The translations under genes were made by a program, and so were the position numbers. Positions 3,020 through 15,265 of a stretch of 44,020 nt of DNA are shown in pieces. Every line of letters starts with the position of its first letter. Within the stretch, counting starts at the first letter, position 1. Below the pieces are notes generated by a model that did not search any database, was not told where the DNA came from, and worked only from the letters and a program-made list of their open reading frames with translations. This DNA comes from Synechococcaceae cyanobacterium SM2_3_1. GTDB lineage: Bacteria; Cyanobacteriota; Cyanobacteriia; Thermostichales; Thermostichaceae. The stretch lies in assembly GCA_012030715.1 (NCBI GenBank), contig JAAUUJ010000012.1, forward strand, positions 1 to 44,020. The letters run 5' to 3'.

Positions 3020-5727
3020 TCAGGAGGTTAGATCAAGGCGGAACCGGGACATGGAAGACTGTAAAGCTTCTACCTCCGTGGTGAGCTGTTGCAGGGTAGC
3101 CGCGACGGTCTGGGCCGATTCCGCAGTGTGCTGAGCCGTTTTTACCACCTGATGCATGGTTTGGTTGACCTGCTGTGAGGTGGTGATCTGGGCAGTGGTA
3201 CTGCTGGAGATCGTTCTCAGGTACTGATCGATCTGCTGACTGACAGAGGCTAGATCGCGAAGGATTGTCCGCACCTGACTCACCAGCAGCGTTCCCGTGC
3301 TCACTTCCTGGGTGCTCTCCACCATGGCCTGTTGGACCTCAAGGGTTTCTCGCTGAATGGTGGCCACCAGTTGCTCAATCGATTTAGTGGCTTCGGAAAC
3401 CTGTTGTGCCAGTCGTCGGACTTCATCTGCCACCACCCGGAAACCCTGTCCCTGTTGCCCTGCCCGCATAGCTTCTACTGAGGCGTTAAAGGCCAGCAGG
3501 TGCGTTTTCTCAGAGATGTTAGAGATCACGGTAGCGATCTTGGCGATCTCCTGGGATGAACGGGTGAGACGCTCAATCTTCGTCGCGGTGTCCTCGACTG
3601 CTGACCGGATCTTGTCCATACTGCTCACCGTTCGTTCAATGGACCGATCCCCTTCCTGGGCATCGAACGCAGCCTGCTGGGCAATGGTGGCTGCCTCCTG
3701 TGCCGACTGAGCCACATTCTGGATCGAGCTGTCCACCTTATCGACCGCCGCCAGGGCCATGGTGACCTCCTCCGACTGATCCAGAGCAGTACTGGACAAC
3801 TGCTGTACCGAACCGGCACCCGACTGAGCCAGGGAGTTCACCTGAATCGCCACCCCCCTGACCTGCAAGAGAAGTTGGCGCAGAGACACCATCGTGGCAT
3901 TGAAGGCATCGGCAATCGATCCGACTGCTCCTTGTGAGAAAGGGGCATAGACCGTCATATTCCCTTCGCGGGCTTCCTCGATCTTGAGCAACAGGTTGAT
4001 TACCCCTTCCTGCAAATCCTCTTTGGCCCGCCGTTGCGCTTCCGCCTCCTGTCCCTGTTCTTCCTCCTTGCGCCGCAGCTCTTCCAGACTGGTCTCAATT
4101 GCCCTACCATCTTGTTCATCTCAATGGCCAGGGTTCCGATCTCATCCTGCCGATCCCCCAGATCAACGCGGACTCCGGTTTGACCGGCTGCCACCCGTTG
4201 AGCAAAGAGGGCCAGATCGCGGATCGGACGAGAAAGCGTGTCTGCCACAATGCTGGCCACAACTAAGGTCACTCCAATCAGGGCAAAGCCCAAGATCCCG
4301 TTGAAGGCGATCTGCTGGAGAAAGCGCTGATTTAAGAGAGTTTGCGGCTCCCCAATGGCCACCATGCCCACCGGCTCCCCTTCTCCCCCTGTCATGGGTT
4401 CGGGATAGGCGTAGAGAGGGCTATAGCTGATTAAGTACTGTTCGCCACCTATCTCTGCAAAATCGATATAGTTCTCTTGGTTTTCTTCAAGCACGGCTGT
4501 GCGTACATCTGCGGGGACAGAAACCCCCAGGGCGCGGATCTCGCCGTTCTCTGCCGCAGCCGTGGTCGCAATCACCCGCTCACGATCATAAATCGAGACA
4601 ATCGGACTCTCGAAGACGCTGGCAAACTGATCGGTAATGGCAAAGTTGTTGTTAAGCAGGCTCCCAATCACCACAGCACCCACCACCTCTCCCTGCAGCT
4701 GAACTGGATAAACCCCCATGCTGATTAATCCGGTCAACTCCTGGGGAGTTTCTGTGGCAGCAGATGCGGGACTGGGGATCTGCGCTGCGGTTAGCAGACC
4801 TAATTTTTCTAGCGTACCCGGAGAAAGTTCATCCAATCCCAATAGCGGCTCAGCTGTTGTAATCGCATCCTGCACCATTGCAATCTCTGCAAGCGATTGG
4901 CTCGGAGGCAACACCAGACTTTCCAGGGCAAAGGTGATCTCCTCCCCCGGCAACTGGGTGGCATCATCTGCGAACAGGTTGATCGAATCGACGACCGTGA
5001 CCCCATCTGCATTGACCAGCAAACGAAAATGCTTGGTGATCTCGGGGTAGATCAGGTCAAAGGCTCCGAAAGAATCCTCCAATAAATTTTCCAGAACCTG
5101 ACGGTTATTCTCCACCGCAGCTGGATCGCTGAGATTAATCTGATTGCTCTCCAGAAATAGGCGGATGGCGTCGGCTTGTGTGAGGGCATCATCGGCATTG
5201 AAGACAATGTATTCTTCCACCAATGCAGCTTTGGTTTGAGAAATGGTGTCCTCAAACTGCTCCTGAACACTGCGCTGTGAAAACACAATGTTGATCGTGG
5301 TTAAGAGCAGGATAGGAACAGAAGCCACCCCCGCCAATAGCAAGGTTTGCTTGGTCCGTAGATCCAAACGTTCCCAAAATCCGGAGTTGGGACTTTGGCT
5401 AATCAGCAGTTTTTGGGCGGGAGCTGTAGACTCAGTATCATCAGGAGCAGGTGCCGAAGTTGAGATCTCTTCATTGAGAGCTGCTTCGATGCGGGCAGGC
5501 AGATCTTCTAAAGCTTTGCGGGCAATCATGCCATAACTACCCGTCGGATCCCTCTCCACCACATGTTCGTAGAGACGCCTGGCTGTGGCATAATCTTCTG
5601 ATTGCTCAGCGGCATTGGCCATCATGATGGTATCCATCAAGCTGGTGACAGATCCACTACCCCCAGTCGCTGAAGTGGTCTCTTCATCCGATGTAATATT
5701 AGGATCCTGGAGCGAGTGATCAAGCAT
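3020..5727 (-). CDS. Methyl-accepting chemotaxis receptor, PilJ-like (one frameshift)
   Basis: This membrane receptor is split by one missing base near 4095-4096. Restoring a C there joins the HAMP domain to the signalling domain. Domains in order: a cytoplasmic N-terminal region with a TPR-like stretch ([19 protein letters not shown]), a transmembrane helix ([22 protein letters not shown] region), a large periplasmic Cache-like sensor, a second membrane helix, HAMP, and a coiled-coil signalling domain whose tip reads [20 protein letters not shown] then [17 protein letters not shown]. From the ATG at 5727 the repaired protein is about 902 residues. A GTG at 5775 would add 16 residues but has no spaced ribosome site. 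It is the second gene of the chemotaxis operon. The indel is more likely a sequence error than decay, because both halves are well conserved. Confidence 0.9.
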
Positions 5728-5914
5728 GATGGAGATCCTGAGATTGGCTGATGGAACCCAGTTAGCACCCACCACTCCTTGGTAAGGAAGCAGTTCGCCG
5801 ACGCAAGAAGATTGCTACGTAAGCATTGATTAAAATTACTACAACTATATCGCCTCTAATCCATAAATCAAGGTAGCCAAGCTTACATCAGATGTTGTGA
5901 GGCATACATAATTT

Positions 5915-6283
5915 TCAATCCCCAAGATGTTTGGAGACTAACTCCAGTAACTCCTTGGGCGCATAGGGTTTGGTGATATAGGCTGTTCCCCCCTGACGGA
6001 GTGCCCAAAAACGATCAAACTGCTCTTTCTTAGAGCTACAAAAAATAATCGGGATCTCTGCCAGTTCTGGCTGGGCACGAATAGTACGGCAAAGCTCCAG
6101 GCCACTCTGTCCTGGCATGACAATATCCAACAGAATCAGATCTGGGGGAGGATTGCTTTGCAGCCATTCCCAGGCATCTTCGGCATTATCTGCTGCCTGT
6201 ACCGTAAACCCGGCTCGGGTCAAAAGCCCCACAGCTACCTGCAGTTCTACCTGCCCATCTTCCACCACCAGAATTTGCTTCAT
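5915..6283 (-). CDS. CheY/PilH-like single-domain response regulator
   Basis: This 122-residue protein is a bare receiver domain with no output domain. The acidic pocket E8/D9, the phospho-acceptor D53 (LLDIVMPG), the Ser pair at 83-84 and K105 (TKPYAP) are all present, so it should be phosphorylated by the CheA kinase two genes downstream. It lies 187 nt upstream of the receptor start and is probably the first gene of the chemotaxis operon. In the related Synechocystis pil cluster the order is regulator, CheW, receptor, CheA. Here no cheW fits between regulator and receptor. Confidence 0.92.
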   Translation of the reverse strand: MKQILVVEDGQVELQVAVGLLTRAGFTVQAADNAEDAWEWLQSNPPPDLILLDIVMPGQSGLELCRTIRAQPELAEIPIIFCSSKKEQFDRFWALRQGGTAYITKPYAPKELLELVSKHLGD

Positions 6284-12675: not shown

Positions 12676-14127
12676 GTGGTCAGTGCACGCATTCTCTTTG
12701 CCTCTGCCGAAGCCGATCCTCTGGCCAAAGTGGGAGGGATGGCGGATGTGGTGGGCACCTTGCCGGTGATCTTGAAACAGTTGGGCCATGACATTCGTCT
12801 GATCATGCCCTTCTACGGCACCCTGGTGGATCGATTTCCCGATTTGATGACCCCCATCTATACCGCCTCGGTCATGTACCAGAGGGTGGAGGTCTATGCC
12901 GCAACCCTTCCCAACACTGATATTCCTGTGTATTTGGTGTCGCACCTGGCGTTTACCCCCAAGCGGGTGTATGGGGGAGAAGATGAGTACTGGCGCTTTG
13001 TTCTTTTCGCCAACGCAGTGGCCATGTTTGCCTGGCATCACTGGAAACCCAATATTATCCACTGCCACGACTGGCACACTGGCCTGATCCCCGCCTGGAT
13101 GGATCAATCTCAGGATATTGGCACGGTCTTTACGATCCACAACCTGGCCTATCAGGGGCCCTGGCGACAGCAGATTGAAGCCATGACCTGGCTACCCGAT
13201 ACTTTTCAAGCCAGCAATGCCATGGCTGCGGGGATCACCTACGCCGATCAGGTGAATACCGTTTCCCCCACCTACGCAAACGAGATTCGCACCCCCGTGC
13301 ATGGAGAAGGGTTGGAGGGGCTTCTGGCCTGGAAGGGCAAGCGAGTCCGGGGGATTCTCAATGGTATTGATCCCGCCCGGTTTGATCCGGCTACCGATCC
13401 GGCCCTCAAGCATCCCTTTTCAGCGAACACCCTCGAAAAGCGCATAGCCAATAAAACTGAGCTGCAGCAAGAGTCTGGTCTGCCGACAGAACCCGACGTG
13501 TTCTTGCTGAGCATGGTATCGCGGCTGGTGGAACAGAAAGGGATTGATCTGCTGTTACAAAGTGTGGTGCAATTTCTCAACTACAGCGATGGGCAGCTGG
13601 TGATCCTGGGCAGTGGAGATCCCCAATATGAGCAGCAATTGCGCGAGTTGCAACAGGGCTTTTCGGGTCGAGTTGCTTTTCAGCAGAAATTTGATGTCAC
13701 ACTGGCCCAGCGGATCTATGGGGGTGCGGATGCCTTTCTCATGCCCAGTCGTTTTGAGCCCTGTGGAATCAGCCAGATGATCGCGCTTCGCTATGGCTGT
13801 GTGCCGATTGTGCGCCGCACCGGAGGACTGGTGGATACGGTGGCCCATCACTATCCAGCAAAGGGAACGGGGACAGGCTACTGTTTTGATCGCTATGAGC
13901 CCCTCGATCTCTATACCTGTATGGTCAGGGCCTGGGAAGGATATCAGTACAAAGAAAGCTGGCGGCAGCTGCAATTGCGGGGCATGGCGGTGGATCACAG
14001 CTGGCGGCGATCGGCTCTGGACTACATTCGCATGTATGAAGAGATCATGCAGGTGCCTCTAGATCCCCACACCACCTTGAAGCAAAGCGACACCCCCAGC
14101 CAGACTGGATCCACCCTGAACCATTAA
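12676..14127 (+). CDS. glgA: Glycogen synthase (ADP-glucose type)
   Basis: The protein has 483 residues and is a GT5 glycogen synthase that transfers glucose from ADP-glucose to growing alpha-1,4-glucan. The substrate-binding KVGGMADV motif with K18 is at the N-terminus, the HDWHTGLIPAWM segment is in the first Rossmann domain, and the C-terminal domain has SMVSRLVEQKGIDLL and the catalytic MPSRFEPCGISQMIALRYG motif. The start is GTG, supported by AAGGAG six bases upstream (12664-12669). The motif MADVVGTLPVILKQLGHDIR looks closer to the second cyanobacterial isoform (GlgA2) than to GlgA1; this is a judgement by eye. It ends 4 nt inside a convergent small gene. Confidence 0.95.
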   Translation: MVSARILFASAEADPLAKVGGMADVVGTLPVILKQLGHDIRLIMPFYGTLVDRFPDLMTPIYTASVMYQRVEVYAATLPNTDIPVYLVSHLAFTPKRVYGGEDEYWRFVLFANAVAMFAWHHWKPNIIHCHDWHTGLIPAWMDQSQDIGTVFTIHNLAYQGPWRQQIEAMTWLPDTFQASNAMAAGITYADQVNTVSPTYANEIRTPVHGEGLEGLLAWKGKRVRGILNGIDPARFDPATDPALKHPFSANTLEKRIANKTELQQESGLPTEPDVFLLSMVSRLVEQKGIDLLLQSVVQFLNYSDGQLVILGSGDPQYEQQLRELQQGFSGRVAFQQKFDVTLAQRIYGGADAFLMPSRFEPCGISQMIALRYGCVPIVRRTGGLVDTVAHHYPAKGTGTGYCFDRYEPLDLYTCMVRAWEGYQYKESWRQLQLRGMAVDHSWRRSALDYIRMYEEIMQVPLDPHTTLKQSDTPSQTGSTLNH

Positions 14128-14246
14128 CGGTTGTGCAGCCAGAACTCCAGTTCTCGCCGGATCATTTCTCGCTCGGCAACGGTTGAGGCTAAGCGGAGCT
14201 GATGCTGAAGTTCGGTAATCACATGCTGGCGCTGAGAAGTCTGCAT
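14124..14246 (-). CDS. Small 40-aa protein under NtcA-type boxes
   Basis: This short frame encodes 40 residues starting MQTSQRQHVITELQHQ and ending RRELEFWLHNR. It has an ATG at 14246 preceded by AAAGGA at about 9 nt. The protein is predicted to be helical and amphipathic, with Leu/Ile spacing, no membrane segment and no Cys. I do not recognise a family. Its leader contains two perfect TGTA-N8-TACA sites, one ending 3 nt upstream of the ATG and one centred about 113 nt upstream. It lies 136 nt downstream of ureE and overlaps the glgA stop codon in convergent orientation. Small NtcA-controlled proteins in cyanobacteria often bind and tune enzymes of nitrogen or carbon metabolism; a similar role here is inference only. 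Confidence 0.55.
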   Translation of the reverse strand: MQTSQRQHVITELQHQLRLASTVAEREMIRRELEFWLHNR

Positions 14247-14249
14247 TTC

Positions 14250-14265
14250 TGTATGTCCTTTTACA
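14250..14265. promoter_or_regulatory. NtcA-type box (proximal): TGTA-N8-TACA
   Basis: A perfect match to the NtcA consensus with extended symmetry, TCTGTA-N8-TACAGA (even TTCTGTA/TACAGAA). It overlaps the Shine-Dalgarno region of the 40-aa gene, so binding there would block rather than activate transcription or act on a start site further upstream. Confidence 0.55.
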
Positions 14266-14351
14266 GAATTAATCTACTAGATCATGCTAACGAGACTCCT
14301 GAAGAGTTGTCGAGATACCCTAGGATACAGTTTTGCGAAAATTAATGTTTC

Positions 14352-14367
14352 TGTATTCAGATTTACA
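14352..14367. promoter_or_regulatory. NtcA-type box (distal): TGTA-N8-TACA
   Basis: A second perfect site with the same extended TCTGTA-N8-TACAGA symmetry, 102 bp from the proximal one. On the minus strand it is followed 24 nt later by TATCCT (14327-14322), which fits a TAN3T -10 element close to the spacing of class II NtcA-activated promoters (usually 20-24 nt). The likely target is the 40-aa gene. Confidence 0.6.
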
Positions 14368-14382
14368 GACAATTGCTTATCT

Positions 14383-14841
14383 TCATGGATGTGAGTGGTG
14401 ATGTCCAGTCAGGGTGGGCTCAAAAGGTAGGTGGGTGATGGCAAAGGGAATCTGGGCCAGACTTAACCAGGCTTGCAGCGGCTCATCCACCAGAGCCATC
14501 AGGGATCCGGACTCCGTCAGCTGGATCGGTCGGTGCCAGTTTCCCAGTTGGTGGGCCACTCGACAGAGCTGAGCGATGGGAATGCCGGAGATCAGGACCA
14601 CGGGCTCCAACTCCGCCACGACTTTGATCAAGCCTTCCTGATCCTGATAAAGGACATCCCCCTGCCGCAATGACCTACCCCGAGGAAGCGCCAGGAGAAC
14701 CTCAGTGCCCCGGTCCGTATGCACCCTTTGCCGCACCCGCTGCCGATCCGCCCAGGAAAGGGTGACCGTCTCCTGCCACGGAATAGATAGATCAGGAGCG
14801 GAGACTAAAGCATGGACCTGAACCCTTGATGGTATAGACAT
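14383..14841 (-). CDS. ureE: Urease accessory protein UreE
   Basis: The protein has 152 residues. UreE is a homodimeric nickel metallochaperone that delivers Ni to apo-urease together with UreDFG. The N-terminal domain has the LSWADRQRVRQRVHTDRGTE and LPRGRSLRQGDVLYQD segments, and the C-terminal ferredoxin-like domain has the AHQLGNWHRPIQL motif. The usual Ni-site motif GNRH appears as GNWH. The tail ends in HHHSHP, a short His-rich nickel-binding end. The start lies 3 nt after the stop of the upstream hypothetical gene. No other urease gene is in the window, so ureE is separated from ureABC, as is common in cyanobacteria. Confidence 0.9.
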   Translation of the reverse strand: MSIPSRVQVHALVSAPDLSIPWQETVTLSWADRQRVRQRVHTDRGTEVLLALPRGRSLRQGDVLYQDQEGLIKVVAELEPVVLISGIPIAQLCRVAHQLGNWHRPIQLTESGSLMALVDEPLQAWLSLAQIPFAITHLPFEPTLTGHHHSHP

Positions 14842-14844
14842 AGA

Positions 14845-15189
14845 CTAGAGGCTTTCCAGGTAATCACTCAGATCCTCTAGCAGGCGGGGCAGCTCTACTT
14901 CTGTAGAAACCCGCATTACGTCAGTTTTCACTGTAAACAGGACTTTAGCCGCATGGGGAGCAGGCCAGATGTTGGGGTTGCAGAAAAGATTGAGCAGCAG
15001 ACCCTCCTGTTGCAGGTTCACATCCACCGAGGGTTGAGGGGTCTTCTTGCCCTGAGTTCCTGCTCCCTGCAGGCGTTCCATGATCTGGCGCAGGGCATCG
15101 TTGAGGGCATGGGCACCAGCGGCAGCAAGCGGAAAACTGACGGATCCAGTTGCAATGTTCAGGACAAACTGAGGAGAATAGAGACTCAT
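14845..15189 (-). CDS. Conserved hypothetical upstream of ureE
   Basis: This 114-residue soluble protein starts at the ATG 15189 (a TTG two codons upstream is less likely). It has a beta-rich start (SLYSPQFVLNIATGSVSFPLA), a helix (AHALNDALRQIMERLQG), a Pro/Lys linker and a C-terminal beta/alpha segment (LFTVKTDVMRVSTEVELPRLLEDLSDYL). I do not recognise a named family. It is almost certainly co-transcribed with ureE (3 nt apart), but whether it acts in urease maturation cannot be told from sequence. Confidence 0.65.
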   Translation of the reverse strand: MSLYSPQFVLNIATGSVSFPLAAAGAHALNDALRQIMERLQGAGTQGKKTPQPSVDVNLQQEGLLLNLFCNPNIWPAPHAAKVLFTVKTDVMRVSTEVELPRLLEDLSDYLESL

Positions 15190-15265
15190 AGCCAATTTTA
15201 ATGGGGTTTATCCACGGACCTTACCGCATTCTGCATACTGCCCAGGTGTTGCCCGAGATTTCTTT

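What the first reader, a model, noticed from the sequence alone, without database searches (positions are those of the whole stretch)
14124..14380. Hidden 40-codon gene beside ureE with nitrogen-control sites
Between glgA and ureE a minus-strand frame encodes 40 residues with an ATG, an AAAGGA ribosome site, and a composition fitting a compact helical protein. Two perfect TGTA-N8-TACA sites lie in its leader. NtcA-controlled small proteins in cyanobacteria (for example the glutamine-synthetase inactivating factors) bind metabolic enzymes. A small gene in a ureE neighbourhood and opposite glycogen synthase could tie nitrogen status to urea or carbon storage. Sequence, sites and overlap are seen directly; the role is inferred.
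Basis: partly seen in the sequence, partly recalled or inferred. Interest (0 to 1): 0.75.

Follow-up and report, generated by a model that had tools for sequence, protein, structure and literature searches.

The report
Nitrogen-regulated cyanobacterial small-protein gene
A 40-residue gene that sits between two unrelated genes belongs to an undescribed family of nitrogen-rich cyanobacterial mini-proteins whose leaders carry conserved binding sites of the same type as those that let the nitrogen regulator NtcA switch off the known glutamine-synthetase inhibitors, so it is probably a new small regulator of nitrogen metabolism.

Summary
The 40-codon minus-strand frame (14124-14246) is a real gene. 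Homologs occur in 48 of 390 sampled genomes of the class and in named Nodosilinea/Leptolyngbya-type cyanobacteria. They share the core R..xVIxELRHQLRYA...ER..IRxEL.FW and are under purifying selection (pN/pS about 0.13). No Pfam, NCBIfam or PDB family matches. AlphaFold2 gives a two-helix hairpin (pLDDT 89).

The two TGTA-N8-TACA sites are not accidental. GTA-N8-TAC lies within 150 nt upstream in 8 of 15 sequence clusters of the family (0.25 expected), while surrounding genes differ. Both window sites read ATACAGAA in the direction of transcription, like the NtcA operators of gifA/gifB (IF7/IF17), including the gifB genes of this genome. NtcA is encoded. The proteins hold 0.86 side-chain nitrogens per residue against 0.39 for other genes here, which suits a protein made only in nitrogen excess.

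Best reading: an NtcA-controlled, probably NtcA-repressed, small protein that works like IF7, PirA or NirP1 but is unrelated in sequence to IF7 and different from NirP1 (PirA could not be compared directly). The proposed tie to ureE or glgA is not supported: the neighbours are not conserved. Target and polarity are inferred, not shown.

The parts
14124..14246 (-). 40-codon gene of a new cyanobacterial small-protein family (two-helix hairpin, Arg/His/Gln-rich); stop codon shares TTAA with the glgA stop
   Evidence: homologs; fold; pN/pS about 0.13
14256..14261 (-). Shine-Dalgarno-like AAAGGA, 9 nt before the ATG, inside the proximal operator
   Evidence: sequence
14247..14268 (-). Proximal NtcA-type operator TTCTGTA-N8-TACAGAA (core 14250-14265), centre -11 from the ATG; gif-type
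14349..14370 (-). Distal NtcA-type operator GTCTGTA-N8-TACAGAA (core 14352-14367), centre -113 from the ATG; gif-type
14284..14313 (-). Weak sigma-70-like promoter (TCGACA-N18-TAGCAT) between the two operators; would put the proximal operator just downstream of the start of transcription (tentative)
   Evidence: 1 found, 0.3 expected by chance

Best explanation
The locus is a stand-alone gene for a 40-residue helical-hairpin protein of a so far undescribed cyanobacterial family, under control of the global nitrogen regulator NtcA. Shown here: the family, its conservation as protein, and conserved gif-type GTA-N8-TAC operators in many leaders. Inferred: in nitrogen limitation (high 2-oxoglutarate) NtcA sits on the operators and blocks transcription at the promoter or just downstream of it; in nitrogen excess it leaves, and the very nitrogen-rich mini-protein is made and binds a protein partner (an enzyme of nitrogen assimilation, or a hub such as PII) to dampen or redirect nitrogen assimilation, as IF7/IF17, PirA and NirP1 do. 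Component likelihoods: real gene 0.97; NtcA control 0.85; mainly repression 0.65; dampening regulator acting by protein contact 0.4. The confidence given is for the gene plus NtcA control, mainly repressive.
For: Homologs in 41 of 390 genomes with the single sequence, 48 of 390 with the profile, and 30 named loci; invariant R, E, L, L, R, L, W positions; pN/pS 0.128 over 436 pairs; confident hairpin. GTA-N8-TAC in 34 of 47 leaders; 8 of 15 clusters against 0.25 expected. Double sites recur in three lineages (window -113/-11, L095 -66/-26, L068 -104/-30), as in Anabaena gifA (-28.5 and -77.5, PMC6316151) and pirA (PMC8092223). gif operators end in TACAGAA in 26 of 36 cases, and both window sites do too. 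The ChIP-identified Anabaena gifA site is GTAGCATAAGATACAGAA (PMC3898017). ntcA is encoded in the genome. Nitrogen content 0.86 per residue against 0.39. Other copies of the extended motif in Nodosilinea lie upstream of a NarK/NrtP-like transporter (name from sequence recall) and of a glutamine riboswitch.
Against: No expression or binding data. About half of the clusters lack a perfect site. TGTA-N8-TACA is not enriched genome-wide. The promoter is only weakly predicted, so repression against activation is not decided by geometry. No partner is known. The family is patchy and is absent from the seven other genomes of the host's family that were searched. The clusters are not phylogenetically independent, so the enrichment P value is optimistic. 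Which protein binds the sites was not tested.
Confidence: 0.6

Rival explanations
1. Same gene and same NtcA control, but NtcA activates it, so the protein acts during nitrogen starvation (or is both activated and repressed from the two sites).
For: Some family sites lie farther upstream (-66 to -113). After the distal window site a TAN3T-like TATCCT follows at N25, near the canonical activation spacing (sequence). Other copies of the extended motif in Nodosilinea lie upstream of a NarK/NrtP-like gene, which is normally NtcA-activated.
Against: The commonest site is 24-29 nt from the ATG, too close for a class II activator promoter. The operators match gif (repressed) sites. The product is extremely nitrogen-rich.
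Confidence: 0.25
2. The palindromes act as RNA hairpins that hide the ribosome site, not as NtcA operators.
For: The proximal palindrome folds with AAAGGA in the loop (-5.4 kcal/mol, z -3.5).
Against: Across 16 leaders no covariation above shuffles; the four TGTA/TACA pairs never vary and the pair next to them is broken in 10 of 16. The invariant core is exactly the NtcA consensus. In most homologs the ribosome site lies outside the palindrome.
Confidence: 0.05
3. The sites belong to a dedicated regulator other than NtcA that recognises CTGTA-N8-TACAG.
For: Extended arms (AAACTGTAG...CTACAGTTT) are unusually well conserved in Nodosilinea.
Against: CTGTA-N8-TACAG is not enriched in five Nodosilinea genomes, so no separate regulon shows. 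Outer bases vary while TGTA/TACA does not. gif genes carry the same extended form.
Confidence: 0.08
4. Chance ORF with chance motifs.
For: Two motif copies in a 44-kb window arise in 2% of shuffles.
Against: Homologs, purifying selection and conserved leader sites in unrelated neighbourhoods.
Confidence: 0.01

Closest known systems
IF7/IF17 (GifA/GifB), glutamine synthetase inactivating factors
   Same: Small, basic, nitrogen-rich; gif-type operator TTCTGTA-N8-TACAGAA; double-site layout known for Anabaena gifA (PMC6316151)
   Different: No sequence relation (hhalign probability 0.2%); shorter; lacks the YDRS tail; all 32 family-positive genomes tested also hold IFs, so it is no replacement
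[quoted passage not shown]
   Same: About 50 aa, nitrogen-rich, positively charged, two NtcA sites in the promoter, NtcA-repressed (PMC8092223)
   Different: PirA is described as frequent and highly conserved across cyanobacteria; this family occurs in 16 of 160 sampled genera, nearly all in a few families. Direct sequence comparison was not possible (no PirA sequence at hand)
NirP1, nitrite reductase regulator
   Same: Small NtcA-repressed protein with a conserved NtcA site over the transcription start (PMC10907346)
   Different: 81 aa, beta fold, conserved Cys and Trp residues; this family is an all-helical hairpin without conserved Cys

Membership tests
IF7/IF17 | Sequence match to the IF7 family (NF052599) or its profile | tested here: not met
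   No NCBIfam hit to IF7A in 17 members; hhalign probability 0.2%
IF7/IF17 | NtcA operator of gif type in the leader | tested here: met
   Both window sites read ATACAGAA, as most gif sites do
PirA | Sequence homology to Ssr0692/Asr1328 | not testable with these tools
   No PirA sequence available; only the distribution was compared (PMC8092223)
PirA | Broad occurrence across cyanobacteria | tested here: not met
   16 of 160 genera
NirP1 | About 80 aa, beta fold, conserved Cys and three Trp | tested here: not met
   Mostly 39-48 aa, two helices, one conserved Trp
NtcA-controlled genes | GTA-N8-TAC site conserved in the leader | tested here: met
   8 of 15 clusters against 0.25 expected
NtcA-controlled genes | NtcA binds and expression depends on NtcA | not testable with these tools
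   ntcA is present; no binding data
NtcA-repressed small regulators of nitrogen metabolism | Repressor-like site position over or just after the promoter | tested here: inconclusive
   Commonest site 24-29 nt before the ATG; transcription start unknown

The most novel reading that the evidence does not exclude
A previously undescribed family of NtcA-repressed mini-proteins inhibits or redirects a nitrogen-assimilation enzyme or PII in Nodosilinea/Leptolyngbya-type cyanobacteria, alongside the glutamine synthetase inactivating factors that all tested carriers also have: a third or fourth independent origin of this mode of control.
Probability: 0.4. Interest if true: 0.75.

Novelty: new member of a known kind. 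Interest (0 to 1): 0.62.

Why it matters
Cyanobacteria steer nitrogen metabolism with tiny proteins released from NtcA repression (IF7/IF17, PirA, NirP1). A further family, unrelated in sequence to IF7 and easily overlooked at 40-48 residues, would widen that principle. It comes with a ready promoter test and a small protein suited to pull-downs. It also shows that conserved operators can find such genes where length cut-offs miss them.

Tried and rejected
Link to ureE/glgA: neighbours not conserved. Homology to IF7: none. Replacement of IF7 in these genomes: rejected, all 32 carriers tested have IFs. Known domain or solved relative: none; weak S21, HAAS and other hits are chance-level. Fold search: only generic hairpins, no E below 0.001. 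RNA hairpin: no covariation. Dedicated CTGTA-N8-TACAG regulon: not enriched. Phage origin: no relatives in viral contigs. Rfam in the window: none. Literature search for the peptide core: nothing. Direct comparison with PirA: no sequence obtainable.

Full report
What is in the sequence. The minus-strand frame at 14124-14246 encodes 40 residues from an ATG with AAAGGA nine bases before it. Its stop shares the bases TTAA with the stop of glgA, with which it is convergent; ureE lies upstream on the same strand and ends at 14383. TGTA-N8-TACA occurs twice in the window, at 14250-14265 and 14352-14367, both in this leader. In the whole genome the bare motif is no commoner than its reversed control (34 against 33). 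The extended form CTGTA-N8-TACAG occurs five times against two for the control, two of the five here. Motif counts alone would therefore not carry the case.

It is a gene. The 40 residues find relatives in 41 of 390 genomes of the class; a profile finds 48, in 16 of 160 genera. Named relatives are Nodosilinea, Leptolyngbya, Phormidium tenue, Tildeniella, Halomicronema and Leptolyngbyaceae MAGs. Members are mostly 39-48 residues long and share R..xVIxELRHQLRYA...ER..IRxEL.FW with seven invariant positions. Pooled pN/pS among close members is 0.13. No Pfam, NCBIfam or PDB family matches. AlphaFold2 on the family alignment gives a two-helix hairpin, pLDDT 89, without a significant fold match. One metagenome-assembled genome has five copies, three in a row. 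Viral contigs hold none.

The leader sites are conserved, the neighbours are not. GTA-N8-TAC is found within 200 nt upstream in 34 of 47 distinct members. After clustering at 75% identity, 8 of 15 representatives have it within 150 nt, against 0.25 expected from shuffles (clusters share ancestry, so the nominal P of 9e-12 is optimistic). In Nodosilinea the site is AAACTGTAG-N6-CTACAGTTT, about 25 nt before the ATG, with TGTA and TACA invariant and the outer bases variable. Two sites, distal and proximal, recur in the window, in L095/L051 and in L068. Neighbouring genes differ between lineages. In the host's own family ureE and a 116-aa upstream neighbour stay together, but neither glgA nor the small gene is next to them. 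The gene is therefore an independent unit, and the suggested tie to urea or glycogen metabolism has no support from synteny.

Which regulator. NtcA is encoded in this genome, and GTA-N8-TAC is its consensus (PMC3898017). As an internal control, IF7/IF17 genes of related cyanobacteria were examined: 35 of 38 loci (a few genes were fetched twice) have a site, and its right half is TACAGAA in 26 of 36 sites. Both gifB genes of this genome have a GTA-N8-TACAGA site too, followed by a glutamine riboswitch. The Anabaena gifA site found by ChIP reads GTAGCATAAGATACAGAA. Both window sites read ATACAGAA in the direction of transcription. In five Nodosilinea genomes the extended motif is rare and not enriched; besides this gene it lies upstream of a NarK/NrtP-like gene and of a glutamine riboswitch. 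This points to NtcA and not to a separate regulon.

Polarity and role (inferred). NtcA-repressed promoters carry the site over the core promoter: gifA/gifB at -30.5/-7.5 in Synechocystis and -28.5 with a second site at -77.5 in Anabaena (PMC6316151); pirA at -33.5 and -48.5 (PMC8092223); nirP1 over the transcription start (PMC10907346). The family's commonest site, 24-29 nt from the ATG, leaves no room for a class II activated promoter. The proteins contain 0.86 side-chain nitrogens per residue on average (window member 0.78), against 0.39 for other genes of the window and 0.56 for an IF7, as expected for something made only when nitrogen is plentiful. The likeliest role is a small protein that damps or redirects nitrogen assimilation by binding a partner. 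The partner is unknown. All 32 carriers tested also have IFs, so it does not replace IF7, and it is not homologous to IF7.

Alternatives. An RNA hairpin that hides the ribosome site is possible in the window but shows no covariation in relatives. Activation by NtcA cannot be excluded because no transcription start is known and the predicted promoter is weak. Direct comparison with PirA could not be made; only the distribution argues against identity.

Verdict. It is a new family of a known kind of regulator, with mechanism inferred.

Noticed in passing
L042 (tandem copies around 5663-6148) and L044, L050; MAG M33_DOE_097: One Leptolyngbyaceae genome carries five copies of the small gene, three in tandem; the three tandem copies and the L044 copy lack the NtcA-type site, the L050 copy keeps it.
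   Followed up: partly
L150 and L151 (own genome, contigs C38 and C263): Two IF17-type gif genes, each with a GTA-N8-TAC site (overlapping TATAAT in one) followed by a glutamine riboswitch (RF01739).
   Followed up: yes
L141, L145 (Nodosilinea): Extended operator CTGTAG-N6-ATACAG about 390 nt upstream of a NarK/NrtP-like transporter gene.
   Followed up: partly
L148 1500-1631 (Nodosilinea): Extended operator directly before a glutamine riboswitch upstream of a very short reading frame.
   Followed up: partly
window 14845-15195 (minus): 116-aa reading frame that stays next to ureE in the host's relatives (41-57% identity); function not examined.
   Followed up: no
L003, L069: Diverged relatives (ELRHQLRYANDYRERDYI...) lacking the FW motif, with GTA-N8-TAC at about -135; possibly a second subfamily.
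   Followed up: no
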